A stretch of 64,000 nucleotides of DNA from Desarmillaria ectypa (taxonomy: Eukaryota > Basidiomycota > Agaricomycetes > Agaricales > Physalacriaceae), in assembly GCA_030407005.1 (NCBI GenBank), contig JAUDYN010000006.1, forward strand, positions 2,976,001-3,040,000, written 5' to 3'. Position 1 is the first letter of the stretch; each line of letters opens with the position of its first letter. The position numbers were made by a program, and so were the translations under genes. Shown here piece by piece: positions 10,307 through 37,941 of the stretch. The notes below the pieces were generated by a model, which saw only the letters and a program-made list of their open reading frames with translations, ran no database searches and was not told the origin of the DNA.

Positions 10307-10641
10307 ATGTCTGCTCCTGCTGCATCGCTCAAAACCAAGACGCGTTCGCGCTCCTCGTCCTCGTCCTCTTCCTCCTCGTCCTCCTCCGACGAGGATGCCC
10401 CCGTTTTCGCTCCGCTGAAGGAAAAGAAACTTCAATTATCCGCCCGCCCACCTGTCGCGGCGTTAGGCAAGCATGGAGCGGGCAAGCAGAAGGAGGCTCT
10501 GAAGCTCAGGTTGGATCTTAACCTCGAGGTGGAGATCGCTATCCAGGCCAAGGTCAATGGTGATATCACGCTTTCGCTTTTGTGAGTGCATTCGAGTCTG
10601 AGGGGGCTTGGCAGTCGATTAACCGGTTTTTTAGGCAGTGA
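10307..10641 (+). CDS. Small-protein family, copy 1 (Ser-rich, longest)
   Basis: About 93 aa. Starts MSAPAASLKTKTRSR, then a run of about 12 serines and an acidic DEDAP patch, a different N-terminus from the other copies. It then joins the shared module: KQKEALKLRLDLNLEV followed by EIAIQ and AKVNGDITLSLL. The donor is at 10582. Acceptance at 10634 (53-nt intron) gives a C-terminal Gln and a stop at 10639-10641. Acceptance at 10638 would give FEGW and a stop at 10649-10651. The other seven copies end in Glu, so this copy has diverged at the splice. A further donor (GTGAGT) sits at 10686, 44 nt after the stop. No signal peptide or known domain. Function unknown. The conserved module and splice position make the gene itself credible. 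Confidence 0.85.
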
Positions 10642-10651
10642 AGGATGGTGA

Positions 10652-13124
10652 TGATAACCCACCGCCGGTGTAGTTTGCTCGATAGGTGAGTGCTTTTTGA
10701 CGGCTTCTTTGTAAAATCTTTCTAATAAAATTTGTGCTGTTAGTTGCTGCTGCACTTAATTGCGGCAGTTGATGGTGGTCGTAAAATGTGACGCGTATAC
10801 ACTTGGAATTGTCGGATTCGTACCTTCGTTAATCATACTCATCCAGTAATAACCATAGTTTGAATTATAAGGATGACGATTAAGAAAATACATAAAAGTA
10901 TCAGTAGCAGCGTCATAAAAATTATGAATCAGTCGCTGTTCTTTTTCAGGCCTAATGGTACCGGTTTCTTCGTAACGACGACACTTTCTGGCAGGCATCA
11001 TTTTTATTCATCCATTCAACTTGGTACATGCCTCGAAACCCGGGATCATGCACGTTGCGTCTGTCCCGATGGCATATCCCGTGATGAGGGAAGATCAGGG
11101 TTCTCCCGATGATAATTCACCCTGTATCGAACATATTTCTGATGGGATCTCTATGGTATTGAAAGCGTGACAGTTTTGGAATAAACCCCTCAGGGGGAAA
11201 TGCCCATATTTACCCCGTTCTTTTTCAAGGTCATGGTGCGAAAATCTTTGGATAGTCTGTATCTAGCAGTGGGTCGCCCTGTCGGTGCGAACTCGAATAC
11301 TCCGTGGAGAAAGCCAGGTACATCCAGAGAAGATCAGGGAGCATGGAACGTAGGAAGTTGGAACCCACCGTTGATGCAACCACACGGACGTCGGGTTAAA
11401 CTCTAAATAGCTCACCTCGCTTTTTTATTCATTCACAACGACTGCGCCCAAGGGTCACTCAGGCTGGGAAGTTCTAGTCATACCTGAGGACGCTTCTGTG
11501 GCAACCCGGGGCCAATTGACTTGCAGTGCAGAATCGTGCTGGGCGCAAATAACCCAGTTCGACACTTGGATCCCATCGATATATTGACTTAAGAATGAAT
11601 AGTAGAGACATCAGCCCTTCTGTTTCGTGACGGCTTACTGACAGCGGAGTTTTGGTAAGGTTACCTAGTGCAATACTTCTGCGATTGCATGGAGGATGCG
11701 AACAAAGCCCTGAATACTTCCTGCTGGAAAGTACCACTTTCGTTCGACTTCGAGATTGACAAACGATGAAAGACGGGGTTCGGTCCGACTTCCGACTGCC
11801 TGGCAGAAACGGCTCAAGATTTTTGATCGCGTTGAGCCACTAGGCCGTTTCCAGACTCTGATAAAATATTCCTCCTCCTCTCGACGGTAATACGAGGTAA
11901 ATGCTGTGAATCATATGATATTGTCTGAAATGTGATAAAGAAGGCTCAATTTTAATTTGGCATAATTTCTCCATTCCAATTGTACTTAGTTTATAACGCA
12001 AATTCTCAAAACCCGTTTGACAGCGCTCCATAAGCTCCAGCAGCACGTCAGGAGTCGAGTCTAAGATTCGTTTCTTTTACTGACATTGAAAAAATGCAGG
12101 AGCGAACTGTGACTGTGGTATTTAAGTCCCCTATAGCCAGAAGGGCTCAGGAAATTTTACGACATGGAAGCAAAGGGACAAATATTTACCAGGCTCGGAA
12201 AAATTCAAACGTGCTTATTTTGGTTCTATCTCCAACATGCGAAGGCTTAGAATTCTTTTTGAATAGAAAGAATTTAAACGGTACTCAATTCCCCAAGCCA
12301 TTCGATGCTCAAAGAAGCGTCGCAGGCCCCTCGTGGCAAATTGTAGAACAGGGTAAATTGCTTCAATTCATCAAAGGCCACAAGAACCACAAGTTTTTAA
12401 GACGGGTGCTGTATTTGTAGCGAATGAATCCGCTGAAATCTCGATTGGTTTCAGGCACCTGGCTTGCGTTTGTGTGCGGATACCGCACGAATTGACAACC
12501 GTGAGGACTCAGTGGTTAGATGGTGTGCTTCCCCTCGAAAACAAGGGCCTTCGTCAACTCCACCGCAGCTCCCACACGGTGTCAGCCAAAGTTTGAGCCT
12601 GGACCGTACTTTCGTATCATTAGGTCAATTGGCGCGGCGTTCAAGAGTCACGCGTAGTAATACGCATCAAAACGCGTCTCCAGGTACTGTGCTTCGAACC
12701 CACCGAAAGGGATGGCGAAGAATGGAACGTGCATCGCTTACCGACTATCAGGCCTTCGTCTTGGATTTCGTGCTCTCTTCTGCTTCTCGATGCGTTCGGA
12801 TGCCCCACACTATCTGATTTTCTGATTTTCGCTGTTCCGAGGCTTTATCGAAGCATGCTATATATAAATTGATTGTTATAGCTTGTGCTTCGCGTCATGT
12901 GTATACAATTATTTTTTGATTTTGTTATGTTATGAAATGAAATTCGTTCGACACCCTTCGTGAACAGTCAGGAATCGCTCGCAGCCGTTACCATAACGTA
13001 CCTACTACCGGGAGTTCTCTTCCAGAAAGGGTCATGTTGCTGTGACAAGACAGCTGTTCTGGGGTGTAACTGTTGGGCTAGAAATTACGTTGCTCCTGAT
13101 CCGGAAGTAGCGCTGGAAAGTCGT
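10652..13124. other. Gene-poor gap between small-protein copies 1 and 2
   Basis: About 2.5 kb. A 108-codon ATG frame at 12094-12420 (+) and several shorter frames show no known domain. A tRNA-like A-box resemblance near 12505 has no matching B box at a tRNA distance. Nothing further can be supported. Confidence 0.4.
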
Positions 13125-13132
13125 ATAAAGGG
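13125..13132 (+). promoter_or_regulatory. TATA box of small-protein copy 2
   Basis: TATAAAGG, 46 bp before the ATG. Comparable TATA elements precede all eight copies at a similar short distance. Confidence 0.7.
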
Positions 13133-13177
13133 GCAAGGTGTTCAGCAATCTCTCCAGCCATCCACAGCTACAACATC

Positions 13178-13445
13178 ATGTCTGCTCCAGAAACCGCTAC
13201 CAAATTCGCCCCCGTCGACAACGCTACTGGTGACAACCAGGTCGCCCCCGCCACCAACAAAGGATTGGGCCGTGGTGGTGTCGGCAAGCAAAAGGAGGCC
13301 CTGAAGCTCCGCTTGGACCTCAACCTCGAGGTCGAGATTGCTATCCAAGCCAAGGTAAATGGCGACATTACTCTTTCTCTCCTGTAAGCGATATTCCCAT
13401 TCGTTTAGTATTAGTCCCATTCTGATTCTAATTTACAGCGAGTAA
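13178..13445 (+). CDS. Small-protein family, copy 2
   Basis: 70 aa. Exon 1 at 13178-13383, intron 13384-13438 (55 nt), exon 2 coding part 13439-13445, which supplies one base of Leu, then Glu and TAA. N-terminus MSAPETATKFAP with a Gly-rich GLGRGGVGKQ linker. The module runs EALKLRLDLNLEV then EIAIQ then AKVNGDITLSLLE. Ten alternating hydrophobic residues precede an NG turn, suggesting an amphipathic beta-hairpin (inference). Codons are mostly C- or G-ending, fitting high expression. A second donor lies at 13493, 47 nt after the stop. The protein differs from copy 6 at only two residues (7 and 25), pointing to a recent duplication or gene conversion. No function is known to me. Confidence 0.9.
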
Positions 13446-16400
13446 ATGTTGAAAATCCTTTGTGATCGAAAGGCCGGTTGTTGGATTGTCAGGTAAGTCT
13501 ATCACTTCTGGTAGTTTTTAGGCACTTAGAGTTTATGTGTATAGTCGCAACGGCTGGGACTTTTGATGGCGATGATTTCGGTTCTGGAAGGATTTATCTG
13601 AACATAGTTTGGCGTTCGATGAAATTTATGACGATACTTACGGTTTCTCAATTTGCACTGTTTTTTTACGTTCTGAAGGAGGTGCTGATGGCGTGATTGA
13701 CTTTCTGAGAGCAAGATGTTACCTTGTTCCGCCGCGTATCACGATAAAAACCTAAAACCGGTTTCTCCTGTGCGAACTATAGGAATGATTTAGTATATTT
13801 TTCTAGCGCGCGTTAATCATCGATAAACCGACTTACGACGCGTTAATTAAGGCCTGTCGCGAGTATTCACGCGCCTCGGTTAAGTATGACGTAAAATGCA
13901 CGCAGAGCTATGCTCCGCGGACGCACTCAAACACCTCACTTTGTCCCCTTATGTTTAAAATTGTAGCTCCTTACGGTCGTACAGTTATAACGAGCTATAA
14001 ATCACGCTTCTTCGCATCTACAATAATCTATTTGAATGATTTGATGAGCAAACTATTCAAATGCGCCAGTACGTTAGCCGCTCTCTGAGACTTTTGGCTT
14101 TACCTCAGGCTCTTGTAGTTTCTTTAGGAGTTCGCGACAAAGAAAAGATCTTATCGCGGGCGCTGTTTCGAACCCTCGCGAAATAGCAAGTCACCTGACG
14201 CTCAGTCCGCAAGGATTCAGGAAGGAAAATGAAATGGACTGCGGAACTTGGATTGAAGCACGGGTTGAACGTAAATGCGGCCAGGATCCGTATTACTGGC
14301 TATAATGGAAGTGACGGCACTTGCGCTTAGCTGACTGAAATACGGATGATGGGAATGACGGATAAGTCAAACGCGGCCTAGCCTACCATTACAGTCTGAG
14401 TGAGTGGAGCAGTTGTACGCACCCCAAATGCAAAGCCTCTCCGATCATGCTCGACTTAGAGTCCCGTGTTGAGCTGGCCGGGGAGTTGCTATTTCCGCCG
14501 TAAGCACATCCAACAATTGTCCATTGGTCTATCGAGTCTGGCCTCGTACAAGATTGCATGGCATCGAAAAGCGTCATGATTCAGACGACCCGATTGGCTG
14601 GAGCAACTCAGATGTCTACGGGTGCTCTTCGCCTCATAAGTCGCAAGAATACGAACGCACAAGAAAAGTAATCTGTACCTTGAGGCTAAGCACCTAGTTC
14701 CGCATGGCAATTCAACGACCTGCCACGATGCGTTTCGAAAGGATGGCCCTCACTCAAACCCGGGTCTCAACAACAGAAACCTGAACTACAAAAGAAAAGA
14801 ACACCACGCAAGTTTTGCGGTACCTTCAACGGTTGCATCCGAAGCCAAAAGGGCACGATACGGTCTTCGCAAGCCTCGAGGCTCGGAGTCGATGCCGGCA
14901 GCCATGAATTGAGTTTCCAAGTCGAGAACACTGTGCGCTGATGGATTTCAAGTTGCAAGATTCGGTAATCACGTGGAAGGAACAGCCACCAGGCGACTGA
15001 TCGAAGCACATGTGATGGTAGCCAAGCGGTTCAGTTCTGCCGCGATATTGCTGAGGAGAAGCGACAAGTGCTCGTTGGGTGGAGGTATCAATGAAGGCGC
15101 TAGTGAGTACCATTTATTGAGTCAAATGAATAACAGCGCATTGATCGGAACCGACCCGCATATCGCGTTGAGTTTCCGCGTTTACCAGCTTTCACCGTGG
15201 ACTGTCATGTTCGACAGTGAGTAGCTTAAGAGGCCATGTGAGCACCCCAATCTTAGGCTGTATTTTGGCTTCCAATTGGAACTCCTGTGGAGAGGGGGGA
15301 AGATCTTTCCGCAGGTTCAGCGTTTTGATTGGTACGTTTGACAGACTCCAGACTCCAGACCTCTGAATGTATTGTTTGTTACTCGTTGCCGATTGGGCAG
15401 TGAAGGATCCATGAACTTCATTGAGCCCCAGATGTTCACGGCCTTCGTTACCGTGCAACACGGTTTCCGCCCGCCTTACAAACTTCAACTTGAAGCTCAG
15501 CCTAGAGTGGGTCTAGTGCGAGGAGACCGTCTCGTAACCATTTCCGGCCAGCATGTTTCACGACATCCCGATGCTTCCATCGCGAATGAATGCACGATTG
15601 CGTTTTTTTCCCAAGACAACTACCTACAGCCCTTGTAAGCTACTCTTTGTTGGTAAACGAAACGTTGGTTGTCTTCCATCCCATTTTCCGTTTGGAAACT
15701 GGCCAAAGAGAACATTCCAATATTTGCTTGTCAAGCTCAGGAGAGCACTGAACGATCTACGGCTGTTCGCTGCCTCCGACCTACGCTAAGTACAAAGAAA
15801 ATTCGAAAGATAGCTTCTATACCCGACCCCTCTTGAAGGAGGAAAGGCTATAGTGACCTTGAATTTGAAGATTGATTAAACTGCCGGTTCGCTCCTGAGG
15901 ATCTCGCATAAGACATAGGAGAGCCGGTAAGTCGGGATTCCCGAATCTCCCCAAATGGTTTTCATTACCATCAGCGCGAACAAAAAATACAACCGAACAA
16001 CAAGGTCACAAGGCCATTCATTGAAGAAACACCAAGCAACGGAGGAACATAATAGAAAATCCAGGACTTCGGCGACGGCACGAAACATTTGTGAGTCAGA
16101 CATCTGGAAAGATTAAATTTGTAAGTGACAAGGGCAGAATAATGACCCATTTGGAGTACCTTCGACACGGATTGCCGTACCCATTCATAGACAAAGCTAT
16201 CGCCTTGATACAGCTCGGGTAAAACCGCATAGACTGAGGCCTAGGTCAATTCTATGAGGCCAAGAAGTCGTGGTTCAACTCGGTTTTTTTGAAGAGCCGT
16301 AGGGAAACCACGAAATATCGCGCCTGTAAGAGTCAGCGCCAATCACGGCCTTTTGAGCTACGTTTTAATTTCCTCCGCCTAAGAGCCCATACAGATAGCC

Positions 16401-16606
16401 CATCACGAAGCCGATAAAAGGACCCACTTACGAGAATCCATTTAGCACAGCATATGCCACCGGCAGCGGGTAAGTATCTTTAATTTCATAACTGCTTGTG
16501 ATGACTTTGACTTCATCGTGAAGGTCCTCTCTTCCAGGATTAGTCAAGTTGCTACAATAAGACAATCAATTCACTCACTTTTGTAAAGCGTAGCAGTGGA
16601 TATGCT
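13446..16606. other. Gene-poor gap between copies 2 and 3
   Basis: About 3.2 kb. The start holds the 3' UTR intron of copy 2. On the minus strand, 16470-15876 contains scattered hydrophobic pieces (FIGFVMGYLYGLLGGG; VYAVLPELYQGDSFVYEWV; CDLVVRLYFLFALMV) that look like remains of a membrane-protein gene, but frames are broken and no family can be named. Confidence 0.35.
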
Positions 16607-16614
16607 TATAAAAG
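16607..16614 (+). promoter_or_regulatory. TATA box of small-protein copy 3
   Basis: Perfect TATAAAAG about 50 bp before the ATG. Confidence 0.7.
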
Positions 16615-16664
16615 TCCTCGAATTTGACAAGTAGCACCATCGAACCCCCAGTTCAAGTATTACG

Positions 16665-16951
16665 ATGTCTTCCGCTGCTGCTCCTTCTATCTTCGGCTCA
16701 GCCCCCGCTCCTCGTCGTGGTAGCGACAGCTCTGATGCTTCCCCCGCCGCTGGTGCCGTCAGCCACCCTTCCCTCGGACCGGGTGGTGTCGGAAAGCAAA
16801 AGGAGGCTTTGAAGCTTCGCCTGGACCTCAACCTCGAGGTCGAGATCGCTATTAAGGCCAAGGTCAACGGTGATATCACCCTCTCCCTCTTGTAAGTGGG
16901 TTCGAGCTCGTTTCACGGTACTGTACTCTTACCTGTACTTCCAGGGAGTAA
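16665..16951 (+). CDS. Small-protein family, copy 3
   Basis: 77 aa. Exon 1 at 16665-16891, intron 16892-16944 (53 nt), final coding bases 16945-16951 giving Leu-Glu-stop. The N-terminus is private to this copy: MSSAAAPSIFGSAPAPRRG followed by a Ser/Asp/Pro/Ala-rich stretch. It meets the shared module at GGVGKQKEALKLRLDLNLEV, with EIAIK instead of EIAIQ, then AKVNGDITLSLLE. A second donor GTTAGT lies at 17001, 49 nt after the stop; an acceptor at about 17052 would make a 52-nt 3' UTR intron. No secretion signal. Role unknown. Confidence 0.9.
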
Positions 16952-17052
16952 ACGTTCTGCGAGTTCATAGCAGTCGGAAGGACAACTGCCGGAATATCAG
17001 GTTAGTCTCAACTTTGTGTCCTTGATTTGGTTCCAGTGCTGAGATGTCACAG

Positions 17053-18815
17053 GACTGCCGCCGGAAAAATCCATTTTTCAGTCTTTGGATAGCCTATACC
17101 TTGATACCGATTTTCCTTCTTTCCGTTTTATTTTCTCCTTTGCCTTGTTTCCGGAAGTCACTAGTGGAATTGTATGTAGTTAAGTGCTGCCTGTTAAATG
17201 TTAATGTCAATGTTACTGTGAAACTTGGGGTCTTACAATCGTCGAGGACGTTTGTGACAGTACGCTTTAGAGAGCGGTAGTCGGAAGTGTACGTACGATA
17301 GCGAACCCTTGATTTACTCCTCTGTTTCACTGTATGTCAGCGTGGGATAAATGTTAGGTGTTCTGAAATGGTAGACCATCACCGTAATGAGTACATTGAG
17401 CGACCTGTATGATGCGAATGTACGACTGTTACTAACCATTAGAGCTCCGAGGTATTGTTCGCCTAGTGATCTTCTACAGCAAGCAAGACTTCCCACAAGG
17501 CCAAGGCACTGGAGGAATAATTTGAATAGTGACCGAATGCGCTGTAATTGCAAGAGTCCTCAGGCGAACATCGCTGGCCACTGTAAAAGATGCAGGCGTC
17601 GGAGTTTGAAACTATCTCTTCCTCGACTGTGACGATGTTGACGACGACAACGATGGCTGCAGACCGTTGCTTCTTCACCAAAACTTCTACGAATACTGCG
17701 TTATTCCTAACTTGATGACTATGGACATGATAGAGGAGGTGAATTTCTTGCCAGGTATCGTTGTTGCTCGGACCGCTGAACGACGGCGTGCTCATTACCT
17801 CCTACGGCCCTGGCGATGCATTGGTAGTGACGTCTCTTTTCAGCCCTGCCACGTTAATCTTTTCTACTATCACCCTACACTGTACTAGTCCATGCGCAAT
17901 TTGGACTCAATATTATCAACGCTGCAGGATATTGCACTCGATGTCTGCTTTGCATAGTATCATCACTGATCTGTACATGACGACGACGACTTGTTACACG
18001 CTTTCAGCAACGCAGCTCAGTCTTCCGAAGTAGTCTGTGTAAGGCTTTTATCCAGTGAGGAGGTCGTCGAACTTCCTCTGTGTCATTGCTTTAAGTGGGT
18101 CGTGCCTGGCTACCCAGAGGCTTTGTGGATCAATTCTCGGACGGGAATACAGACCGTTGCCCAAATTTACTGTTAGAACCCCCACCGCTTCTTGAGGGAC
18201 AACTATCCAAGACGATGGTGATGGATGGTCACGTCCGGGCTGTGTTGCGAAACTGGACACTATCACCATCAACCCCTGGCCGCTGGCGGGTACCTTACCA
18301 GTAGGTTAATGAACCTGGGTACATAGCGCCCACTTATTTCGTTGTCCATCATTAATTCGGCATTGTCATTTAGGCACGCCATCGGCCGCGAGAGTACGCT
18401 AACACAACCCAAAATTCCGAGATAGCAATCCCCTAAGAACACGAAGGCGAAGTTGTAGCCTTCATCTTTAAGGAATATTCAAGTACGACTGCTACCTATG
18501 CTGCCAGATTCTCTCTCAAAATATTCGGTGGACTCAAAAAGGAAATCTATGTTGCTGGTGCAGGATAGATGGGGTTTTGCGCGACCGACGAGATTCTTAC
18601 TATGGACCTTGACGTCGTACCTCTCCAGGGTCTCGACCCTTCCTCGTCCAGTTCCAGCGGACGGATGTCATCCGAGGCGCAATGTTGATTATACTCACAC
18701 ACCGCACACTTTACGAAACGACGTGAACAGCGCTCGAATTTATGCGCCGATGGGGTCCAAAGCGGTACCTGATTTCCATGCCTAAGGCAGCAAGATTTCC
18801 TTACTCTTTGGCTGG
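17053..18815. other. Gap between copies 3 and 4
   Basis: No gene recognised. Short frames on both strands lack domain, splice or codon-bias support. Confidence 0.4.
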
Positions 18816-18823: not shown

Positions 18824-18878
18824 GAGCGGTACATCCTAGGTTTCAGTACCAACACAAACCAGTATCATCATCCAAATC

Positions 18879-19139
18879 ATGCCAGAATCTGCTTCTTCTC
18901 GTGCTTCCTCTCCTGGCACTCCTGCCCACGGCCAAGCTGCCACCATTAACAAACAGACCTATGCTCACGCTGTCGCTAAGCCGTACAGGGAAGCGCTGAA
19001 GCTTAGGCTGGACCTCAACCTCGAGGTCGAAATTTCTATCAAGGCCAAGGTCAATGGCGACATCACGCTCTCTCTCCTGTGAGTCTATTATCTCTCGGAA
19101 TAGTTTCGAGTTCTTACTTGCTTGTTCCACAGCGAGTAA
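18879..19139 (+). CDS. Small-protein family, copy 4
   Basis: 68 aa. Exon 1 at 18879-19078, intron 19079-19132 (54 nt), last coding bases 19133-19139 adding Leu-Glu-stop. The N-terminus starts MPESASSRASSPGTPAHG, Ser/Pro/Ala-rich and different from the MSAPET copies. The module reads REALKLRLDLNLEV, then EISIK, then AKVNGDITLSLLE, with Ser for Ala and Lys for Gln on the exposed face of the predicted strand. A second donor lies at 19189, 49 nt after the stop. Function unknown. Confidence 0.9.
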
Positions 19140-20886: not shown

Positions 20887-21148
20887 ATGTCTTCTCCCCA
20901 AGCCGCTCCCAAAGTCACCACCGCCGAGCATCCCTCCGTCGTTGGTGGTGATAAGCATGTCGTCCACGTCCCGGCCGCAAGAGCACCCCACGTCAAACAA
21001 AGGGAAGCGCTCAAGCTCAGGTTGGACCTCAACCTCGAGGTCGATATCCAGATCCATGCCAAGGTCAACGGCGACATCACGCTCTCTCTCCTGTGAGTGA
21101 ATTTGGCTACGCCGGCCTTCTTAAGCTGATCGTGATTGCAGCGAATAA
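20887..21148 (+). CDS. Small-protein family, copy 5
   Basis: 70 aa. Exon 1 at 20887-21092, intron 21093-21141 (49 nt, shortest of the set), final bases 21142-21148. Here the last Glu codon is GAA rather than GAG, a synonymous change that supports selection for the terminal Glu itself. N-terminus MSSPQAAPKVTTAEHPSVV with several His and Val. The module is the most diverged in its middle: EALKLRLDLNLEV, then DIQIH, then AKVNGDITLSLLE. Every change falls on alternate positions, so the hydrophobic face is intact. A second donor GTTGGT lies at 21202, 53 nt after the stop. Confidence 0.9.
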
Positions 21149-21713: not shown

Positions 21714-23571
21714 ATGACTTTACTTCTTCCCCTCATCGTAAACTCTGGCACCTTTGCCCCATCTTTCACCCTCTTCTCAATCCTCACGAACGCCCCGTAT
21801 ATAGTTTTCACGGAACTGGGTAACAAGCACCTGAAGCTCGCTCGAACGATATGTTCTTCCATAGCTAGCTACCACGCTGCCCCCTTCCCACGGCTGTACC
21901 TCCGGATCCCATTGGCAACGTGTATGATATGCAAGACTAGTCATCTCCATCAACCTCGAGAACGCACGCTTGAACGCAAACTGCTCGTCTTTCCCTGCAA
22001 GAAGTCGTCGAGTGTACAGCCAGCTGGAAGGAGAGAAGGTGGACATACCAGAGAAGATGGATAGAGTTTCCAGCCTGAGTCGCACTCGGGGTTCTTCCTG
22101 CTTGCTAGCATCTGAGTAGTGGTATGAGACCACATTCGAGCGGTGCTTCTCCGGACCGACAGACTCCGCCAACATCACATCTGAATTGTCTGTTCCGCAG
22201 TCAATGTCTATCTGGAAGACATTGTCCAGTTGTACGTCTGTCATGCACACTACCCTACAGTAGGCTTCATACAGAGCGTCAACGAGACTGATAAACCTCC
22301 TAGCCTGGTTCTGTCCGGAAGGAAGACGAATGATGAGTATGTCAGTGATGACGATGGTGCGAAACGTGGAGGAAAGTGTGAGGTAGTCTGCAGGGCCAAG
22401 GTACTAGGTATTTGAGTTCTCTGTCGGGAAAAGGCTGGATGACTATATCTCTTCACAAAGTTGTTGAAATGAGAACATGCATGCGTCTCCTTGAGGTGAT
22501 ATGACATGGAGCTGACGGCCAAAGACGGTAAGGTCACGTGATGACAAAAAGGTCGACCTGCGCATCTACGAAACTCTCGAACTTGTCCTTTTCTGCATTG
22601 ATAAACCACATCTTCCGCCCCGCTCCGGCCCCCCGAATTCTCCAATCTTTGCTCTCGTCTTCCCCAACGTTGACGACCTCGCGCCACCGAATGCACCAAG
22701 CGTCTCTCGCTAAATTCCATTGACGTATAGATCCTCTGGAACTCTGTTTGACGTCCAGACGACGATACCACCCATGCGCCAATACCATATCAGGACATAC
22801 GAGAGAAGAAGCGCGCTGGAGATATCTTGGAGCTGAAATTCATCGACAAGGAAAACATACGATGAGTAGTATCTTGAGGCGAGAACGTACGGTATAGGTG
22901 CTGAGTACTGAGGTGAAGAGGAGGGTCGTCGCAGGCAATGCCAGAACGAATCGGCCCTCTCGATGTCGGCCTTGAGCATCTGGCGCACTTGATTACGGAT
23001 AGATCTGGTCCAAGGCGTCGTTTCGATTCTACTATCAAAGGGATCAACATCGCGCATTCGTTTGGCTGTTTCCTCCCATACGCCGCAGTAGATATCGAGC
23101 ACGAGCTCGCTGTAATGTTTGCGGGACTTGTAGGGTGTCGACAACGATGCGAACTAGGTATCGGCGAGGAACGTCTTTCCTTAGCCTGTTGGACTGGTGA
23201 GAAATAAGCCTTTAGGAAGCGTCAGCTGTGCCAGGTCCTTGGACTTGATGAGCGCTTTGATTTTTAAGGTCAAATGTCTAAAAGGGACGTCGGCCAAAGG
23301 AAGGGAAGAACTTTGGGTTGTCGTATAGTTGCGAAGGTCTCTGCTGAGCCTTCTGAGCTACTAATGATATCACGAAAAGATTGGCAAAGTCACGTACCTT
23401 CATGATTGCTCTTACCCACCCTTCATCCCATTCTACGCAACCAAAGTCGACCAAGGCGTTATACCTGTCCAGCAAGTCTGTATGCGCAAGCTGGGTTGAA
23501 TAATAACGGGCCCTCGGAAGCGTCGCTCTCATCAGTAAAACGGAATAAGGGTGAATAATATTGGATTGCAA
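21714..23571 (-). pseudogene. Dead AFG1/LACE1-like ATPase
   Basis: Living AFG1-like proteins are mitochondrial P-loop ATPases involved in protein quality control. Recognisable family pieces run along the minus strand: DLLDRYNALVDFGCVEWDEG; LTLPKGLFLTSPTG; YKSRKHYSELVLDIYCGVWE; PWTRSIRNQVRQML; SYVFLVDEFQLQDISSALLL (Walker B region); WRMGGIVVWTSNRVPEDLY; RRFISLVDALYEAYCRVVC. The copy is broken. A TAA (23181-23183) sits inside the Walker A loop, where SPTG is followed by a stop and then GKT. A TAG at 23154-23156 follows LADT, and another TAG at 22710-22712 falls where the family has Gln after VNGI. The frame also shifts in the 22.5-22.7 kb part. Ends are approximate. It is flanked by small-protein copies 5 and 6. 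Confidence 0.8.
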
Positions 23572-25946: not shown

Positions 25947-26211
25947 ATGTCTGCCCCAGAAACCACTACCAAGTTCGCCCCCGTCGACAATGCTACTGGT
26001 GACAACCAGGTCGCCCCCGTCACCAACAAAGGATTGGGCCGTGGTGGTGTCGGCAAGCAGAAGGAGGCTCTGAAGCTCCGCTTGGACCTCAACCTCGAGG
26101 TCGAGATCGCCATTCAGGCTAAGGTCAACGGCGACATCACCCTCTCGCTCCTGTGAGTACTCTGTCCAGTTCCGCTTTTTTCGCCCTCTGAATCTGGCTT
26201 GCAGCGAGTAA
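25947..26211 (+). CDS. Small-protein family, copy 6
   Basis: 70 aa. Exon 1 at 25947-26152, intron 26153-26204 (52 nt), last coding bases 26205-26211. N-terminus MSAPETTTKFAP. It is identical to copy 2 except Thr for Ala at residue 7 and Val for Ala at 25, although intron and 3' flank differ more. The conserved module is unchanged, ending AKVNGDITLSLLE. A weaker second donor (GTTCGT at 26262) lies 50 nt after the stop. Strong codon bias. No known function. Confidence 0.9.
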
Positions 26212-28120: not shown

Positions 28121-30450
28121 ATGTTTGGAGTCATCTCTCTGAGCGTTGCTCTGCTCGCAGTATCTTCTGTGGTGACTGGGAGTCCCGCTCCCCGCGTCAT
28201 GACCATCCACGATCAGCGCGATGCTGCCCCCAACCGCTTCGTCAAAGGGAACGCGGCAGATCCCCAGGCTAATCTGAATTTCCGTATTGGCCTCACGCCA
28301 AAGGATATCACTGGCCTCGAGAAAGCCTTGTACGCTGTCAGCGAACCAGATAGCGATCTATACGGGCAGCATCTTAGCTTCGAGGAGGTGTGTCTATTTC
28401 CCCCTCATGTTTATATACCTGTTTATTCATCGTTACCTAGGTCAAAGCATTCAGCGAGCCAACTTCAGAGGCAGTAACTGCTGTCACTAGCTGGCTTGCC
28501 GATAACGGGATCACTGACGTCAAACCTAGCGGTGCTTTCGATGACTGGCTGACGTTCACAATTCCCGTTGAAAAAGCCAACACTCTTCTCAATGCCCAAT
28601 ACGAAAACTTTGTACACACCGAAACGGGGGAAAGCCTCATCCGTACCTTGACTGTTTCGATACCGTCAGACCTGACCGACTTTATCGAGGTTGTGCACCC
28701 TACGACGTCTTTTGCGAGGCCTACCTTTGGCCCGAAACCCGTGGTGTCCATTCCTCTGACGTCTAACCTTACCGAGCGAGCGAATCCAGCTCCTTCGTCG
28801 TGCAACAGCATCGTTACACCCGCTTGTCTGCAGGCTCTCTATGGTATTCCCGCAACTCGCGCTACGCAATCGAGTAATCAATTGGGGGTTTCTGGTTTCA
28901 TTGATCAGTTTGCTCAAGTAAAATTCCCGGTTTTTCGTTTGTATCAAGCTGACAAGTGCTACAGACGGCAGATCTTCAAACGTTCTTACGTGCATTGAGG
29001 CCTGACGTGCCATCGACGACGACATTCACTCTGCAGACTCTCGACGGTGGTCAGAACCCTCAGAGCGCGAATCAGGCTGGAATTGAGGCTGTAAGAAATA
29101 AATTCGAACCTTTCTTGATCGTCGGGCTGATACTGGCTCAGAACCTCGACATTCAGTACACTATTGGTGTTGCTACCGGTGTTCCGACCATTTTCATCTC
29201 TGTCGGCGACGCGACAACTGACGGCGTGGCTGGTTTCCTTGATATCGTCAACTTCCTTCTCGCCGAAACTAGCCCACCTCAAGTATGTTGTTATTTGTTC
29301 AGAATCACATAGCTCAATAGCATTCCCATAGGTCTTGACGACCAGCTACGGTTTCGATGAGACGGATCTTCCGGCTAGTGCTGCAACGTGAGCTATTTTC
29401 AGAGCTGTTCACACGCAAATTTTTTCATGGTGGCGCAGACGCTTGTGCAACGCATACATGGCTCTCGGTGCTCGGGGCGTGTCAATTCTCTTTGCATCCG
29501 GTAAGATCTTGAATTATCCCAGCCGATTTCTCTTCTGAATGTGACAATGTAAATCCAGGTGACGGTGGTGTAGGAGGCGGCCAGCAAGGTTTATCTAGTG
29601 TCGCTTTTCGTTCCTTGTCTTAGTCTGACAATTCATAGGCACAACTTGCACGACCTTCATTCCCGCATTCCCTGGAGGTTGTCCGTGTGAGTATCCAATT
29701 ATGCAGACTGAAAATTTTACTTAAAATTGATGCCTGTAAATAGTCCACACTGCTGTAGGCGCAACACAGGGCGTAACCGAGACTTCGGCGACCTTCAGCA
29801 GTGGCGGTTTCTCCAACGTTTTCACTCGCCCATCATACCAAGCCTCAGCTGTTACCACCTACCTCAACGCACTGGGTAGCACCAATGCCGGAAGGTTCAA
29901 TACAGCTGGCCGAGGATTCCCCGACGTCGCAGCACAAGGCAACAATGTTGAGATCGTGTCCGGCGGACGAGCAGGCCTGGTTGGTGGAACCTCATGCTCA
30001 AGTCCTATATTTGCAAGTATCATTTCCCTTATCAACGATCGCCTGATTGCAGCGGGGAGACCGGTACTCGGCTTTTTGAACCCCTTGTAAGTGGAAGTCA
30101 AGATCGTGAGAGCGGGAACTGAAATGAATTAGCTTGTACGCGCACCCGTCTGCGTTCTTTGATATCACTACCGGGAATAACCCGGGATGTGGGTTGCTTT
30201 TTTCCCGCGTTCGATATGGGATGCTGATAATCATAAATCAGGTGGCACTACTGGTTTCCCTGCACGAGCTGGATGTAAGTGGATGGTCATTTGTTGCACG
30301 AAATAAGACTAACTCAAAATTTCAACCTTTTCAAGGGGACCCTGTACGTCGCGTCCACTCCCAGGCTGATATTCCCTACTGATTTTACTCTAGGTTACCG
30401 GCCTCGGTACACCCAACTTTGCTGCATTGTTGGCAGCGGCAGGCTTATGA
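28121..30450 (+). CDS. Secreted sedolisin (peptidase S53, tripeptidyl-peptidase type)
   Basis: Secreted acid serine protease that degrades extracellular protein. The ATG at 28121 gives a signal peptide (MFGVISLSVALLAVSSVVTG). A pro-kumamolisin domain follows (RIGLTPKDITGLEKALY; HLSFEEVKAF), then the S53 catalytic domain. The catalytic Glu/Asp pair is in AGIEANLDIQYT, restored by an intron between GIEA and NLDI. The oxyanion Asp is in FASGDGGVGGG, and the nucleophile Ser in GGTSCSSPIFASI. The calcium-site region FFDITTGNNPGC and the end GWDPVTGLGTPNFAALLAA are created by several short 3' introns. There are roughly eleven introns (first 28388-28440). All joins keep frame and the full family length is present, so the gene looks intact. 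Confidence 0.92.
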
Positions 30451-30799
30451 AGGGTTATTTCACGATGTATCTGTTATTGTTGTAAAATTTTTTAAGCAAA
30501 GAAGTTTTCAATTCATCCACTTACGGTGTCTTGACTCCGGGGGCTCATCCATTTAAGTTCATATATGACATCTGAACTTTGATCCCTTTTTTCAGAAGCA
30601 AAGAAAATCTTGCTTTCAAAACTATGTTCACTTGATCATTCTGAGGCAAACTGAATGTCGTTAATGTCAAGTGGACGTTTTGAGATTGTGCATTGACGGT
30701 CTTGAAAGCACCAAATCGTGAACTCGTCAATGGTTGAAGTAGAAGGGATAGTCTACGTATGCAGACTGTTTCAAGGATATCCGTGGTGATCGTGGCCAA

Positions 30800-31786
30800 C
30801 GTTCTTGCAAGGTATGACTAGCATCTTTTTTCGGTGGTATTCACCCTGGGAATGAAATGGATGGAGCGAAGCTTGCCGCAAGAGCCGAGGTCAAAGGTCT
30901 CCGGCGTGTTCTGTATGAATCAATGTCAAGTCCACATCGGACTGAACATGAAAAAGCAAAAACATACCAGTATAAGAATCTTCGATGACCAGATTTATGA
31001 CGTGCGTGAGCAGGGAACCTGCTCTTGGTCTAACACCAAGACGGGCATGCCTGAGGTGCAATGCCAGGCACCATATTGATTGCATATCCACCACGGAATT
31101 ATGGCACAAAAGATAGTTGACGATGCATTTAGATACGTGAATGCTACATGTCCGGAGTTGGAGACGAGGGCTGTCGATACCGACAGACCTAAGCCACCCG
31201 CACAGTGACTAACGTCACTCCCTTCGTCATGCTACAGGGAAAGAACTTCGAGGGAATTTATAGAGGGACCGCAACCAGAAAGGAAGTTGAAGAGGTTGCG
31301 ACACGAATTAACAATGTTCCCGTCCAGTCGTATGCACTCCAGATGGGGGGAGCGGAAGGCGTTGATAAGTGAATTGCCTAAGGCATCAGAAGTACGCTGG
31401 ATTGCAAAGGCATGGATCTATTTTCCTTCATCATCGTGTTCGGGCTCGCTGACGATGGAGATACTTCGAAGACGGCTAAGCGAAGATAGTACGACTGGCA
31501 AAATGGGGTCCTGGACTATCCAGGTCGCCGTCGCCTCTTCATCTTCCAAAAAAGGGGGATCTCAAGGATATCTAGGCGGTGAGGGAAGGAGGCGACGTCA
31601 GGATAGGTCACCGAGATTTCTTGGAAACGCCGACACGACTCGGCGTTGTACAGAAAGATCATCTTAACAAGAGAGGTCGGCTACGCGTTCTGAAGGAACG
31701 ACAAACAGAGTTGCAGCTGATCAGTGGAGATCATTCGTCTTCTAGAAAATTGATGATTTCGTCGACGAGTTCTTGTGGCGGCAGCT
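30800..31786 (-). pseudogene. F-box protein relic
   Basis: At 31786-31735 the minus strand reads LPPQELVDEIINFLEDE, an F-box start like those of the other F-box genes here. It is followed directly by a stop, then by SPLISCNSVCRSFRTRSRP, the next part of the same motif in the same frame. More in-frame stops follow every 20-30 codons. Leu-rich fragments continue to about 30800, but their frame cannot be tracked. The left boundary is approximate and only the F-box part is firm. Confidence 0.5.
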
Positions 31787-32173
31787 AGATCGACATCGAA
31801 TGACAGTCACGGAAAAGGGAACTTGGCGTAAAAATCTGACTCGGAGCCCGGTGAATTTGCCAAAATAAGAGGCTACATTATATTTTTTTCAAGCAAAGGC
31901 GCAGGCCCCTCCCCTCTCCTTTGCTCCCCTGGAGGGTTTGTTGCTGCTACCTTCAACGCAGTATATGGTAACATTGACCGGAAAAGTCGTGGAACGGCGG
32001 AGCTCCGTGCGGAAATAATCACTACTGCTTAAAGTCGCGCCCTTTCCACCCCAAACGTCGCTCTCCCTCCCAAAACTTGGGTTGGCCGACCTCAGCGCGA
32101 CATAACCTTTTTTGCTGTTTGAATTGAGACAGCCGCGATAGATCGGCAATTCCCGGCGCTCTACAATTCTGCA
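31787..32173. other. Upstream region of the SHMT gene
   Basis: Presumed promoter and 5' UTR. No gene recognised. Confidence 0.45.
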
Positions 32174-34116
32174 ATGATTCGTCTGCTCTTTTCTCGACCC
32201 CCACTATCCCGGATACCTTTCCCCCTCCCTTCTTCACGCCTGATTCATCCCAGCGTTAGAAAAATGGCCACAGCGTCGACACCTGAATTCGTATGTGCTC
32301 TGTCTCCGTCAATGAAGCAGTTCATGACTCGTTCTTGCCAGAATAAAATGCTCTACGCCCCTTTGGCGGAAATCGACCCAGAGGTTCAAAATATCATTGA
32401 AAAAGAGACGTGGAGACAGCTTTCTGGTCTTGAGCTGATTGCTTCAGAGGTGCGTTGTTACGACAATCTGAAACGCGCATATAAGCTGAACGGAAGCGTA
32501 GAACCTTACCAGCCAGTCTGTCATGGAAGCGAATGGCTCCATTTTGACGAACAAGTATTCAGAGGGTCTACCAGGTGCCCGTTACTACGGTGGTAACGAA
32601 TACATCGATGAACTTGAGAACCTTTGTCGCAAACGTGCGCTCAATGCCTTTAATCTTGATTCTGCAAAATGGGGTGTTAATGTGCAGCCTTACTCTGGAA
32701 GCGTGCGTCTGTCCTCTCCTCCACTGGGTCGTATCTAAAGTTTGTTTTACGTTTAGACGGCCAAGTACGTTGGCTATTGAATTCGAGCGACATTTTCTTA
32801 CCTCTCATTTAGCTTTGCTGCCTTTACCGCTCTCATTCAGCCTAACGATCGTCTCATGGGTCTTGGTCTCCCCGATGGTGGCCATCTCACTCACGGTTAC
32901 TACGTGCGTATTGCTCAACAACGAGAATGACTGCTGTTTGACTCGATATCACTAGACCGCGAAAAAGAAAATGACCGCCTCCTCCATCTACTTCCAATCG
33001 TTACCGTACGCCATCACCCCCGATACAAATCTCATCGATTATTCTGCTCTTGCTGCCCAGGCCAAGACGTTCAAACCGAGAATGATAGTCTGTGGCGCTT
33101 CTGCGTACCCTCGTGACTGGGACTACGCCGAGCTCAAAAAGACTGCTGAGAAGGAGGGCGCATGGCTTCTGTGCGATATGGCCCACACGAGCGGTCTTGT
33201 CGCTGCACAAGAACTTAACAGCCCATTTGACTATTGCGATGTAGTGACGACTACAACGTGAGTTTCTCTGTCCTTGCTTGCTTCACGCGTTGACGCGTAT
33301 CTATAGGCACAAGACGCTCCGTGGACCCCGTGCTGGTCTCATCTTCTTCCGGAAGGACCTCGAGAACGCCAAGGACCTCGAGAAACGCGTCAACGAGGCC
33401 GTCTTCCCCGCATGCCAGGGTGGTCCCCACAACAACGCACGTTCTATCGCTTCACCTGGCTTTGCCTACTATACTCACTATTTTGCAGACTATCGCTGCT
33501 GTCGCTACTGCCCTCCTTCAAGTCGCCCAGCCTGCATTCAAGGATTACGCGAAACAGGTTATCCTGAACGCCCGCGCTCTCGCTGCCTCACTCTCTGAGC
33601 ATGGCTACAAGCTCCAAACGGGTGGAACAGACAATCATCTCGTTCTCTGGGACCTTCGTCCTCTCGGCTTGACTGGTAGCAAGATCGAGAAGGTCTGCGA
33701 TCTCATGGGCATCACCATTAACAGTACGTTCATTCCTTTCTATGAGAAATCCCACGTTAATTACTTTTTCTAACATAGAAAACGCTGTCTCTGGTGACGC
33801 TTCTGCCCAAGTCCCCGGTGGTATCCGTCTAGGCACCTCCGCTTTGACGTCACGCAACATGGTTGAGTCGGATATCAAAGTCGTCGCAGACTTCTTGCAC
33901 CGCGCCGTCCAGCTATCTCTGATCCTGCAGAAGGAGGCTGGAACAAAGATACTGAAGGACTTTGTGCGCGTTGCGACGACGCAGGAGGAGGGCAAGGAGG
34001 GCTATGCCAAGGTGAAGCAGCTGAGGGATGAGGTACGGAATTTTGCGAAGCAGTGGCCACTCCCGGGTGTAGATGCAGCGACGTTCAAGAAGCCTGAGGG
34101 TATTCATGACGATTGA
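32174..34116 (+). CDS. SHMT: Serine hydroxymethyltransferase (mitochondrial, possible dual start)
   Basis: PLP enzyme interconverting serine plus tetrahydrofolate with glycine plus methylene-tetrahydrofolate, the main one-carbon entry. The ATG at 32174 opens an Arg/Ser/Pro-rich, acid-free leader ([16 protein letters not shown]) typical of mitochondrial import. A second in-frame ATG at 32264 (MATASTPEF) would give a cytosolic form. Family blocks: ELIASENLTS (across an intron), [64 protein letters not shown], the PLP-lysine segment [14 protein letters not shown] (Lys codon 33311-33313), [11 protein letters not shown] and [17 protein letters not shown]. An 8-nt internal exon (32757-32764) lies between two introns and is needed for STANFAAF. 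All joins keep frame and the length is normal. Confidence 0.95.
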
Positions 34117-34264
34117 GACCTAGCTGGTGATGCTTGCTTTTTGTGATGATGTTAGCTTTGATACGACTCGTGTAGAAGATTCAACGATCATTGTATTTGT
34201 AGTCATAAGTACTAGCGGACATTCAACATCGTCCGGATGTTATACTGTAATATTCGTGCCATAA

Positions 34265-35435
34265 CTATCGTGGTAGGAGCGGAGCTGTGCATCTCTCAAT
34301 CAACAGGTTACCTCGTTCACTACACGACGCTAGCCTGTCCTTCAAACCTTTGCATACTTGCTCAAAATGAGCGTGGCCGTATACTAGAAACCTCAGACGT
34401 GCTCGTGCCAGTTGCTCTGAGAAGAGCCGATCCAGGTCCACCCAGTCGATAGGTTCATCCTGCGCATCCAACTCGTCTAATGACCAAGGGGCTATCCCTA
34501 GATCGACCTTTTCCAGTGTAGAGGGATTTAGTTGGTGTAGGATCTTTAGGACCCACGGCCCAGCACTCGTCACCTGGGATACCTCCGTGTTACTGATGAA
34601 ATAGTCGACCCTCAGATGGCGCAAAGTGGTATTCAAACCCAAGTTTGCTGAGAGGTAAAGATCCTCTAGTATCCAAAAGTTAGAAAGAGAAATCTCAAAT
34701 ACGTGTACGGACCGCACCTGCGTCGCCCCCAGCATCAAATGACCAGAACCCGAACGTGAGGGTCTGTAATGTCTCCCCGAGGCGGGAAAGGTACGTGCCG
34801 ATGGACTGGGTATCTGCAGGTCGTACAGAATAGCCGAGGTCGATGTGCGGTATCAACGGGATGGGCTCGAGGGAACACAGCCAGCGGAAGATGTCCCGCT
34901 GATAGCAGTCGGACAAGGTTAAATGGGTTAGGCTGATCGGTAGCAGGTGTGTATCCAGGTGAGGATCCGTCCAAGACGTGTCGTGGATGGAGAGTGACTG
35001 GAGAAGAGGGAAAGACGTGATGAAATCGAGTGCATGGGAGAGGGAGTTGAATATGACTGTGTCCAGGCGGAGAATCGTGATCCCGGGAAACTTGGCCGAT
35101 AAGGTGGATAGAGGTGGTTCCCACTTTGCGAACTTGATACGTAGGGAAGTTGTATTCTGTAGGACCGGAAAGTATTCGAGGGTGCGGGAGAATGTCTCTG
35201 GTGGCTGAGCTTCCAGTACAAGGTCGATCTTGCGTAAGGTATGTGGAATGAAGCTGTTGGTATTGGCGCAAAGTTGAATGAATTTACATAGGTTCACTGT
35301 TGTTACAACAGCACGGAAAGAATGACGCCGACTCGACTCGAGCCAGTACTTGGAGACGAGACTGCACGTCCTCAAAGTCTCAGAATCGTTACGCAAATAA
35401 TCCAAGATGACATCCACAAGCTCAGCGGGAATCAT
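34265..35435 (-). CDS. F-box protein
   Basis: Mushroom-type F-box protein, probably an SCF ubiquitin-ligase substrate adaptor (inference from the domain). The ATG at 35435-35433 starts MIPAELVDVILDYLRND, the F-box, followed by CSLVSKYWLESSRRHSFRAV. The rest is Leu/Ser-rich with irregular LRR-like strands (SLSIHDTSWTDPHL; LTHLTLSDCYQRDIFRWLC). The frame seems broken near 34.7 kb, but a 52-nt intron (34666-34717) restores GGDAEDLYLSANLGLNTTL, so I read the gene as intact. An open frame extends upstream of the chosen ATG without another good start. It ends CTAPLLPR at 34265. Confidence 0.8.
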
Positions 35436-36436
35436 TGTAAAAATATTTCTTCGTTTCAAATCAGAAAACTGAGTACAAGTCTGAAAGGATGTAACTTTCA
35501 CCACTATCTAGAAATCCATCATAGCCCGTAAGCGTAGTGTTGCTAGCGAAAGCGAAGTCGAAGTGGATCTACGACGGAACAATATCTCCCGTACAATCTT
35601 CTGCTCTGGAGGAGCATGTATGGAAGGGATAAGTCGTCGAAGAGATTTGAAAAGAAAGATTTACGACGAAAATTTATGGCGGGGCGGCAGCTTCCGATCC
35701 AAATATGGCACGCAAATACATGGTCCGTGCGCAAACTTTCAGACATATATAAGGAAGCTTCCGACACCCAGAATCTTTACCACTCTGGCCTTTTGGCTTA
35801 GATCAAGTGTAGTATCTGTTCTTAATAGTTTAACCACTATTACGGAGGCACCGCCTCCCGTATTGGTTATCTAATTTTTGCCGCCCTTGTCCTCTGTGCT
35901 CTGCTTGCAACACGGAGGCGTGATGACTTTGCTACTGCAGTATCGGCTTGCGTCGTCGGGGGATCCCTTTTTCTTTGCTGTTTACTTGCGAGGACTTCCA
36001 ATTGGCGGTCTTTGCGTTGCAGCAAACAAACATGGGATAGTTGAACTTTTATTGTTAGGTTATTTACTTGTAATGTCGAAGGTGGCTGGTAGTCGGTTGG
36101 ATGTACCCAAGTTTTTGTATAATTTATTCCAAGACTGAGGATCTGTTCATAACAGAAATTTTGAGTGGCGTGTAGTGTAGTCAGCTTCATTGCCTGAGAA
36201 CCGCCTTTTGAAGGTCAACAGCTTATCTTCATACCGACTGAAGAGTTCGGTTTACGAGACTAGGTCAAGAGCGCCGAGTTTTGCTCAATCACACAAAGGG
36301 ATGGTCGGTCAAAAATGTATTGGAAAGCAGCGCTACATGTAAGAATGATACATCCATTCACTATCAAAACATTGAAGAGCTACACATTAAAAGCGCTCTC
36401 AGTAAAGCAACATCTGATAACGAAATCAAGACTAAC
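35436..36436. other. Gap between F-box gene and small-protein copy 7
   Basis: No recognised gene. The right end is the 3' flank of copy 7, with its second splice donor at 36436. Confidence 0.4.
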
Positions 36437-36486
36437 CCGACAATTTATGACCAACCTCTCCGTCACATTCAAGTACGACAGCAAGT

Positions 36487-36738
36487 TCACTCACTACGCG
36501 CGGAGAAAATCAGCCAACCTCACTCGATGAGTGCATAATCTACTCACAGGAGCGATAACGTGATGTCGCCGTTGACCTTGGCCTGGATCGCGATCTCGAC
36601 CTCGAGGTTAAGGTCAAGACGGAGCTTCAGAGCAGCAGGAGGTGCAGCCTGGCGCTCAGAGCGACCAACTATTTGTCCGCCGAGGACAGAGGAGGATTGG
36701 GTGGGTGCGAATTTAGTAGCGGTTTCTGGAGCAGACAT
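36487..36738 (-). CDS. Small-protein family, copy 7 (only minus-strand copy)
   Basis: 65 aa. Exon 1 runs 36738-36548; intron 36547-36494 (54 nt); final bases 36493-36487 read T-GAG-TGA, giving Leu-Glu-stop. This copy uses TGA where the others with a terminal Glu use TAA, yet keeps it. N-terminus MSAPETATKFAPTQSSS is shared with copy 2 for its first 12 residues. It enters the module as PPAALKLRLDLNLEV, lacking the usual Lys-Glu. A second donor GTTAGT begins at 36436, 50 nt after the stop. The gene is divergent to copy 8, with 984 bp between the two ATGs. Confidence 0.9.
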
Positions 36739-37722
36739 TGTTGGAAGATTTGCTGGCCAGCCAACTCTCTTTTATACGCGACCGGCGATGTTGTGGGGGA
36801 GGATATTTTTTGGGAGTCCAGAGCCCTCGTGTTCTAGTGTCAAATTGGAAGCACACTTGTATTCGAGCTGTCGTAAGCTTGTAGCAATGGATTCTTACTG
36901 ACCCAGCGCATCCACAAGCATGATGTTTATCGAATTTGGCGCAGAGATATTCTTCTTCTCCATGACAGACCTACCTGGGCCGGGCACAAAGAGGAAAAAG
37001 AAGAGCATTTAGGGCGAGAAATGGTGGGGGTGGCGGCTGCCGAAAATCGGGCTAATTCGTTGCAACAGGACGATGAGCTTCGGACGATACCCAGACAGGC
37101 CGACTCACGAAACTGCCATTCCGTCGAAGGCTCTTTTCTCATGACGGCTGATTTTGAGAGCAGCAATCGTTGCATTTTTGATGTAAAGATAACGAGATGG
37201 GGTCCATCGAGACCGAAGGATGGGAATATTTTCTAGAACTCTACTCTGGGGGACGAAGATGTGCCTCGGTGTCCGTCATGCGGAATTGATGGTGCAAGAG
37301 TAACACAGTCGTGGATGATGGTGTTTGCAAATCAAGCCGGACCTTCCCGCGATGAAAAACTTTGGAGTGAAATTTGGGACCCACAAGCACCTATACATGT
37401 GGCTACTCTTCCCGGCCATGCCATCAACAAAATGCTGTATTATACCTCCACCCTGTGCATTCTACTTCACCGGTCTATGTTCAACAGTCCCCGAGTCTCA
37501 GGCAGGGATATCTTCTGCAGCGTGTTCTTTATGAAATAAGAACCGTTACGTAGTGAGTACCTTCCTTACAGCTTCGAGACGAAAAAAGTTAAGTTGCTTG
37601 GACGAGGCACCCGACTTGTTTAGCTGCATTATAGCGTGAAAATATCCTCATCTGTACCCTGGGTCAGTCGTTTCTCAGATAAAAGCCTGAGGTCCAAGTC
37701 ATACATTCATCATCAGCACAAC
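36739..37722. promoter_or_regulatory. Divergent promoter of small-protein copies 7 and 8
   Basis: The minus-strand TATA box is at 36769-36776 (TATAAAAG read leftward), 31 bp from the ATG of copy 7. An AGATAAAAG element at 37677-37685 lies 38 bp before copy 8. No gene recognised between them. Confidence 0.6.
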
Positions 37723-37941
37723 ATGTCTGCCCCAGAAACCTCTACCTCTGTCGCCACCCGGTCCAACCAGGGCACCGTCGCTCCCAAGGAAGCTTTGAAG
37801 CTCCGTCTTGACCTCAACCTCGAGGTGGAGATTGCCATCCAGGCCAAGGTCAACGGCGACATCACCCTTTCCCTCCTGTGAGTCGATAATTACCGCTATC
37901 TCGGGTGCCTCCCGCTGACCAGTCATTTTCACAGCGAGTAA
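37723..37941 (+). CDS. Small-protein family, copy 8 (shortest)
   Basis: 53 aa, the minimal form. Exon 1 at 37723-37877, intron 37878-37934 (57 nt), last bases 37935-37941. MSAPETSTSVATRSNQGTV leads almost straight into PKEALKLRLDLNLEV, then EIAIQ and AKVNGDITLSLLE. It shows that only about 20 residues are needed ahead of the module. The second donor GTGAGA lies at 37993, 51 nt after the stop; an acceptor at about 38049 would give a 57-nt 3' UTR intron. Confidence 0.9.

What the first reader, a model, noticed from the sequence alone, without database searches (positions are those of the whole stretch)
10307..37941. Eight-member small-protein family with an invariant C-terminal module and private N-termini
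Eight genes (10307, 13178, 16665, 18879, 20887, 25947, 36738 minus, 37723) encode 53-93 aa proteins. Their last 31 residues are almost the same: EALKLRLDLNLEV, a five-residue E/D-I-x-I-x variable patch, then AKVNGDITLSLLE. N-termini differ in length and composition. The module alternates hydrophobic and polar residues over about 19 positions and then has an NG turn, suggesting an amphipathic beta-hairpin. Variation falls on the polar face. No signal peptide, TM segment or known domain is visible. I do not recognise the family. Possible roles are a self-assembling structural or amyloid-like peptide, a membrane-active peptide, or a tag directing variable N-terminal peptides. The last three are speculation.
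Basis: partly seen in the sequence, partly recalled or inferred. Interest (0 to 1): 0.92.

Follow-up and report, generated by a model that had tools for sequence, protein, structure and literature searches.

The report
Ancient fungal tail module, locally multiplied
A mushroom genome carries dozens of tiny proteins that end in almost the same 28-residue tail, and the same tail closes otherwise disordered-looking proteins in distant fungi, so it looks like an old, still unexplained attachment or assembly device.

Summary
In detail: 8 of 8 genes are there, and after splicing one small intron they encode proteins of 53-93 aa with a near-identical C-terminal module. The genome has 53 matches to the module, 40 of them in one 258-kb array. 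In 44 copies the module has pN/pS 0.09, so it is under purifying selection.

Seven of 8 N-termini are not private but recur in paralogues and other species. The module is not a local family: a profile finds it in Mycena, Psilocybe, Coprinopsis, Sordariomycetes, Aspergillus and the chytrid Spizellomyces, mostly at the C-terminus of S/P/Q/R-rich proteins. Pfam and PDB sequence searches, prokaryotic and viral scans and letter searches in the literature found no relative.

Best mechanism, inferred: an amphipathic beta module that folds on meeting copies of itself and clusters disordered heads. Close rival: a docking strand for one conserved partner. AlphaFold models are low-confidence; parallel in-register stacking looks unfavourable.

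The parts
10307..10641 (+). Gene 1: exon 1 10307-10581, intron 10582-10634, last codons 10635-10641; 93 aa, Ser-rich private N-terminus (RSRS12DED), ends SLLQ
   Evidence: intron is a prediction from sequence
13178..13445 (+). Gene 2: exon 1 13178-13383, intron 13384-13438, last codons 13439-13445; 70 aa, ends SLLE
16665..16951 (+). Gene 3: exon 1 16665-16891, intron 16892-16944, last codons 16945-16951; 77 aa
18879..19139 (+). Gene 4: exon 1 18879-19078, intron 19079-19132, last codons 19133-19139; 68 aa
20887..21148 (+). Gene 5: exon 1 20887-21092, intron 21093-21141, last codons 21142-21148; 70 aa
25947..26211 (+). Gene 6: exon 1 25947-26152, intron 26153-26204, last codons 26205-26211; 70 aa, N-terminus 95% identical to gene 2
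36487..36738 (-). Gene 7: exon 1 36738-36548, intron 36547-36494, last codons 36493-36487; 65 aa, the commonest N-terminal subtype
37723..37941 (+). Gene 8: exon 1 37723-37877, intron 37878-37934, last codons 37935-37941; 53 aa
13301..13384 (+). Example of the 28-residue module (LKLRLDLNLEVEIAIQAKVNGDITLSLL), 84 nt; the other seven start at 10499, 16809, 18996, 21010, 26070, 37795 (+) and 36630 (-)

Best explanation
The 28-residue C-terminal module is an amphipathic beta element with one fully aliphatic face and one polar face. I propose that it is largely unfolded alone and folds by pairing with copies of itself and of its paralogues into a small beta oligomer, most likely with antiparallel strands and the two aliphatic faces packed together. 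Each protein would thereby bring a flexible, variable head into a common cluster. In most fungi seen here one or a few proteins with long S/P/Q/R-rich heads carry it; in the Armillaria group a short version was multiplied in a tandem array so that many different heads can enter the same mixed assembly. Shown: gene structure, copy number, purifying selection, C-terminal position, fungal breadth. Inferred: beta structure, self-assembly, co-assembly, clustering.
For: Aliphatic residues at every odd position 1-19 and at 23, 25 and 27, with few exceptions among 58 distinct modules. Two-thirds or more of the module is held even between a chytrid and a mushroom (24 of 28 between P0160 and P0138). 26 of 44 D. 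ectypa copies have the identical module protein although synonymous sites are at pS 0.49, as expected if all copies must fit one another; N-termini of the same genes vary more (pN/pS 0.0-0.53 over 7 subtypes, against 0-0.05 for the module). No transmembrane-like stretch. 43 of 60 codon-level and promoter traits were not compared with a genome background, so expression is not claimed as evidence beyond a TATA box in 36 of 43 genes, 0.57 expected.
Against: AlphaFold2 gives no confident fold: one module pLDDT 63.7 and no strands reported; a chain with two modules pLDDT 50.1 with one short strand in each module. The best antiparallel charge register is no better than in permuted sequences (85% and 97% of permutations reach it). 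Parallel in-register stacking scores -7.8. Polar positions such as K2 and N8 are held nearly residue for residue, tighter than a generic self-assembling peptide would need. No experiment.
Confidence: 0.4

Rival explanations
1. Docking strand: the module is a C-terminal binding element that completes a beta sheet of one conserved fungal protein; the many paralogues compete for, or adapt, that partner.
For: Near-invariance of the polar face as well as the aliphatic face, K2, L3, G21 and L27 without exception in 58 distinct modules; C-terminal end in 51 of 59 long-type proteins; no confident fold of its own.
Against: No partner is known. A partner would have to serve about 44 paralogues in this genome, and no shared neighbour or fused domain was found; Pfam columns were empty in the listed relatives.
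Confidence: 0.35
2. Interface anchor: the amphipathic strand lies on a lipid or membrane surface (recalled analogy: amphipathic beta strands of apolipoprotein B) and brings the heads to an organelle or lipid droplet.
For: One face purely aliphatic, the other polar; no signal peptide-like or transmembrane-like stretch needed.
Against: Polar face is mixed in charge and fixed residue by residue, more than surface binding needs.
Confidence: 0.1
3. Functional amyloid or prion-like signalling motif with parallel in-register stacking.
For: Short, beta-prone, attached to low-complexity heads.
Against: Seven to eight charged positions would stack on themselves; mean charge score -7.83 for the parallel in-register arrangement. 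No fused effector or receptor domain in the listed relatives.
Confidence: 0.08
4. Ordinary multigene family without a specific module function, the similarity being due to recent duplication or gene conversion.
For: Tandem array of 40 of 53 matches.
Against: pS 0.49 with pN 0.044 and the same module in other orders and phyla.
Confidence: 0.03

Closest known systems
Uncharacterised long-type fungal proteins carrying the module (for example Spizellomyces SPPG_06961, Mycena filopes C8R46DRAFT_1148894, Hypoxylon sp. GGR52DRAFT_565994)
   Same: The same 28-residue C-terminal module, 18-20 of 28 identical to the window's commonest module, and the same end-of-protein position in 51 of 59
   Different: Long N-termini (median 95 aa against 37), Q/G/S/P/R-rich, polybasic runs in 36 of 59 and S-P motifs in 45 of 59; H at position 20 instead of N in most
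Septal-pore SPP proteins of Aspergillus oryzae and SPA proteins of Neurospora (passages of PMC10023807 read)
   Same: Fungal proteins of unknown biochemical function with disordered parts that are needed for accumulation at the pore
   Different: No sequence link was tested or found. The SPP set was chosen as present in Pezizomycotina and absent or divergent in yeasts, whereas this module also occurs in a chytrid
Designed beta-hairpin peptides with strict V-K alternation (recalled, from no call)
   Same: Strict alternation of aliphatic and charged residues around a tight turn
   Different: Natural, C-terminal to a disordered head, mixed charges, asymmetric strands
Bactofilin (PF04519)
   Same: A weak resemblance of ...AKVNGDI... 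to the repeat, 1 of 60 members at E 0.068, below cut-off
   Different: Whole genome has no bactofilin match at E<=10; the 19 uninterrupted alternating residues do not look like its short coils (recalled)

Membership tests
Any Pfam-A family | Score over a curated cut-off in the module | tested here: not met
   0 families for 2 window proteins at E<=10. Over 60 relatives, 14 families each matched a single member at E<=0.1, best E 0.00072 (HemX); no family was shared by two members
Bactofilin | Profile match over the cut-off of 27.9 bits | tested here: not met
   13.9 bits in 1 of 60; none in the genome
Protein of solved structure | Sequence match to a PDB chain | tested here: not met
   0 matches at E<=10 with profiles A2 and A1
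Fungal C-terminal module family (named here) | Module matched by profile, located at the C-terminus | tested here: met
   51 of 59 long-type and 45 of 132 short-type database proteins end within 3 residues of the module; the other short-type models carry extra 3' exons that I think are misplaced (see full report)
Functional amyloid | Cross-beta fibrils, dye binding, seeding | not testable with these tools
   Only charge stacking was scored, unfavourable for parallel in-register
Septal-pore SPA or SPP proteins | Localisation at septal pores | not testable with these tools
Beta-hairpin fold | Two strands joined by the N-G turn | tested here: inconclusive
   Low-confidence models

The most novel reading that the evidence does not exclude
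A kingdom-old fungal assembly device: one 28-residue beta module, kept almost letter for letter from chytrids to mushrooms, that builds a defined oligomer at the tail of disordered proteins; in the Armillaria group it became a mix-and-match scaffold in which some forty paralogues present different heads on one polymer.
Probability: 0.25. Interest if true: 0.85.

Novelty: new variant of a known kind. Interest (0 to 1): 0.62.

Why it matters
A short module that is nearly fixed across fungal phyla yet has no family model, solved relative or printed description found here is a clear gap in annotation of fungal proteomes. It is small enough to synthesise, so its assembly, partner and location are directly testable. 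If it is an assembly tag, the D. ectypa array would be a natural library of heads on one polymer; if it is a docking strand, it points to an unknown conserved fungal hub.

Tried and rejected
Private N-termini: rejected for 7 of 8. Local or lineage-only family: rejected. Recent duplication or gene conversion as the reason for identity: rejected by pS 0.49. Prokaryotic or viral origin: pattern scans gave 100 and 67 stretches, none confirmed at E<=1e-3; a 28-residue match is short, so distant cases could be missed. Bactofilin: weak single match, not supported. Charge-pairing register as proof of an antiparallel dimer: not informative, permutations do as well. Single protein search with the C27 copy reached only itself. 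First attempts at finding TATA-to-stop anatomy used a splice position off by one and were redone. A two-module chain for AlphaFold: alignment rows fell on one module only and the model was poor. Papers: letters of the module, six locus tags, and topic searches gave no paper describing it; only passages of PMC10023807 were read, the rest were seen as listings. Recalled but not from any call: a PANTHER entry named 'expressed protein' may already group ascomycete members; I could not check it, and a text search for its number found nothing.

Full report
Check of the observation. Six-frame reading finds the module at 8 of 8 stated places. Exon 1 ends at ...SLL with CT|GTGAGT, CT|GTAAGT or CT|GTAAGC; an acceptor follows 49-57 nt downstream and gives one more residue and a stop. 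Seven end in E; the 10307 gene ends in Q. Because the donor is GTGAGT or GTAAG, an unspliced transcript stops at once after SLL, so the protein loses only its last residue either way. The introns are predicted from sequence; no transcript was available.

Copies in the genome. A search with the 30-residue module gave 53 matches in the 40.6-Mb assembly, 40 of them between 2,756,163 and 3,013,878 on contig C29 and 13 elsewhere; the tool warns that such counts are lower bounds. Six contig lengths equal those listed for Desarmillaria ectypa proteins (C29 and C3, C30, C27, C1, C32; against 11, 15, 19), so the organism is inferred with good confidence (lineage: Physalacriaceae, Agaricales). From the loci fetched around the matches, my extraction pattern took 51 rows, two of which are one decayed copy fetched twice; three matches (C29:2952868, C29:2897941 and C27:1290099) do not fit the pattern and were left out. 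Leaving out the decayed copy and five divergent ones, 44 remained for the selection test.

Selection. Among the 44, 26 have the identical 28-residue protein, there are 40 distinct DNA sequences, and over 946 pairs pS is 0.49 and pN 0.044, ratio 0.09; for the 8 window genes alone 0.50, 0.046 and 0.09. Pairs are not independent, so this is a description, not a test with a P value. In 7 N-terminal subtypes of equal length (31 genes) the head has pN/pS of 0.0 to 0.53 while the module has 0 to 0.05 where it can be computed (5 of 7). So heads evolve faster, but several are conserved too.

Gene anatomy. 36 of 49 copies looked at have an acceptor of the form AG|NGANTRR at 49-60 nt, giving LLE and stop (34 as LSLLE, one LFLLE, one LSFLE); 13 do not fit this strict form, among them decayed copies and the 10307 gene, which reads LLQ. 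27 of those 36 have a possible second donor 44-52 nt after the stop, which may mark an intron in the 3' untranslated region (pattern only). A TATA box lies 35-70 nt before the ATG in 36 of 43 genes with a start, 0.57 expected in shuffles; 6 of the 8 window genes have it. Codon choice leans to C- and G-ending codons (GC3 0.65), but I did not compare it with other genes of this genome.

N-termini. 7 of 8 window N-termini match a paralogue at 88-100% and a protein of another species at 74-100%; only 10307 has none (best 34%). Database relatives from Armillaria, D. tabescens and Guyanagaster show the same subtypes. So the subtypes are older than the species split and the heads are not free-running.

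Breadth. A single-protein search gave 173 proteins at E<=1, of which 120 were listed; all that were named are from Armillaria, Desarmillaria or Guyanagaster. A profile of ten modules, three of them designed by me, gave 1034 proteins at E<=10 among 7992 candidates scored, 120 listed. Of the listed rows 17 are named from outside these three genera: six Mycena, Mucidula, Cylindrobasidium, Coprinopsis, Psilocybe, Hypoxylon, Annulohypoxylon, Apiospora, Xylaria, Mariannaea, Aspergillus keveii and the chytrid Spizellomyces punctatus. The chytrid module shares 24 of 28 residues with that of Mycena filopes and 18 of 28 with the window's commonest one. 191 of the 194 collected proteins fit my module pattern; 59 are of the long type and 132 of the short NGD type. 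51 of 59 long-type proteins end within 3 residues of the module. Only 45 of 132 short-type database models do; the rest carry varied extra tails. I read these tails as gene-model errors around the tiny last exon, because the acceptor before NGAGTAA is conserved, but that is inference, and the alternative of real longer 3' ends is not excluded. Prokaryotic genomes (one per 84,980 species) and viral contigs gave no confirmed relative.

What the module looks like. Positions 1, 3, 5 ... 19 are aliphatic, then N/H-G-D, then aliphatic at 23, 25 and 27. Over 58 distinct modules K2, L3, G21 and L27 never vary; position 14 varies most; 10 and 12 are nearly always acidic; 16 and 18 mostly basic or Q. 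This suggests a long strand, a turn and a short strand. AlphaFold2 did not confirm it: pLDDT 63.7, pTM 0.19 with no strands reported for a window protein, and pLDDT 50.1, pTM 0.22 with strands at 59-64 and 129-134 for a two-module chain. I made no fold search with such models. Charge scoring favoured an antiparallel pairing about residue 7, but 85% and 97% of permuted sequences do as well, so it is not evidence; parallel in-register stacking scores -7.83.

Mechanism. The aliphatic face cannot easily stay bare in water, so the module should meet something: itself, a partner or a lipid surface. Mutual compatibility of some 44 paralogues argues for co-assembly (0.40); residue-level fixity of the polar face argues for a specific partner (0.35). 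I keep both, with a lipid-surface anchor (0.10) and amyloid (0.08) behind.

Standing. No curated family, no solved relative by sequence, and no printed description found in the searches named. The proteins are already in public databases as hypothetical proteins. I therefore rate it as a new variant of a known kind (a conserved module of unknown function on disordered proteins, with a tandem expansion) and keep the bolder reading as the novel case.

Noticed in passing
window 35777-35965 (+): A U2 spliceosomal RNA gene (Rfam RF00004, 109.4 bits) lies inside the array.
   Followed up: no
window 21780-22403 (-), 28441-28995 (+), 32123-33770 (+): Ordinary genes sit between array members: AFG1-like ATPase, pro-kumamolisin and serine hydroxymethyltransferase fragments.
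   Followed up: no
L017 minus strand, around 2942 (C29:2897941-2898030): A copy inside the array joins a long, different head to a module with VHGD instead of VNGD; it could resemble the founder of the short type.
   Followed up: partly
L035 (C12:3588524-3588610) and L009/L036 (C29:2756163-2756246): Copies with changed module residues or an in-frame stop, apparently decaying; close relatives of L035 are open in other species.
   Followed up: partly
P0122, P0123, P0124: Database models with two modules look like read-through models of neighbouring genes; P0124 combines the two D. ectypa genes of L025.
   Followed up: partly
after the stop codons of the array genes, e.g. window 13446-13500: A possible second splice donor recurs 44-52 nt after the stop in 27 of 36 copies, close to the distance at which nonsense-mediated decay is said to start (the latter recalled).
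   Followed up: no
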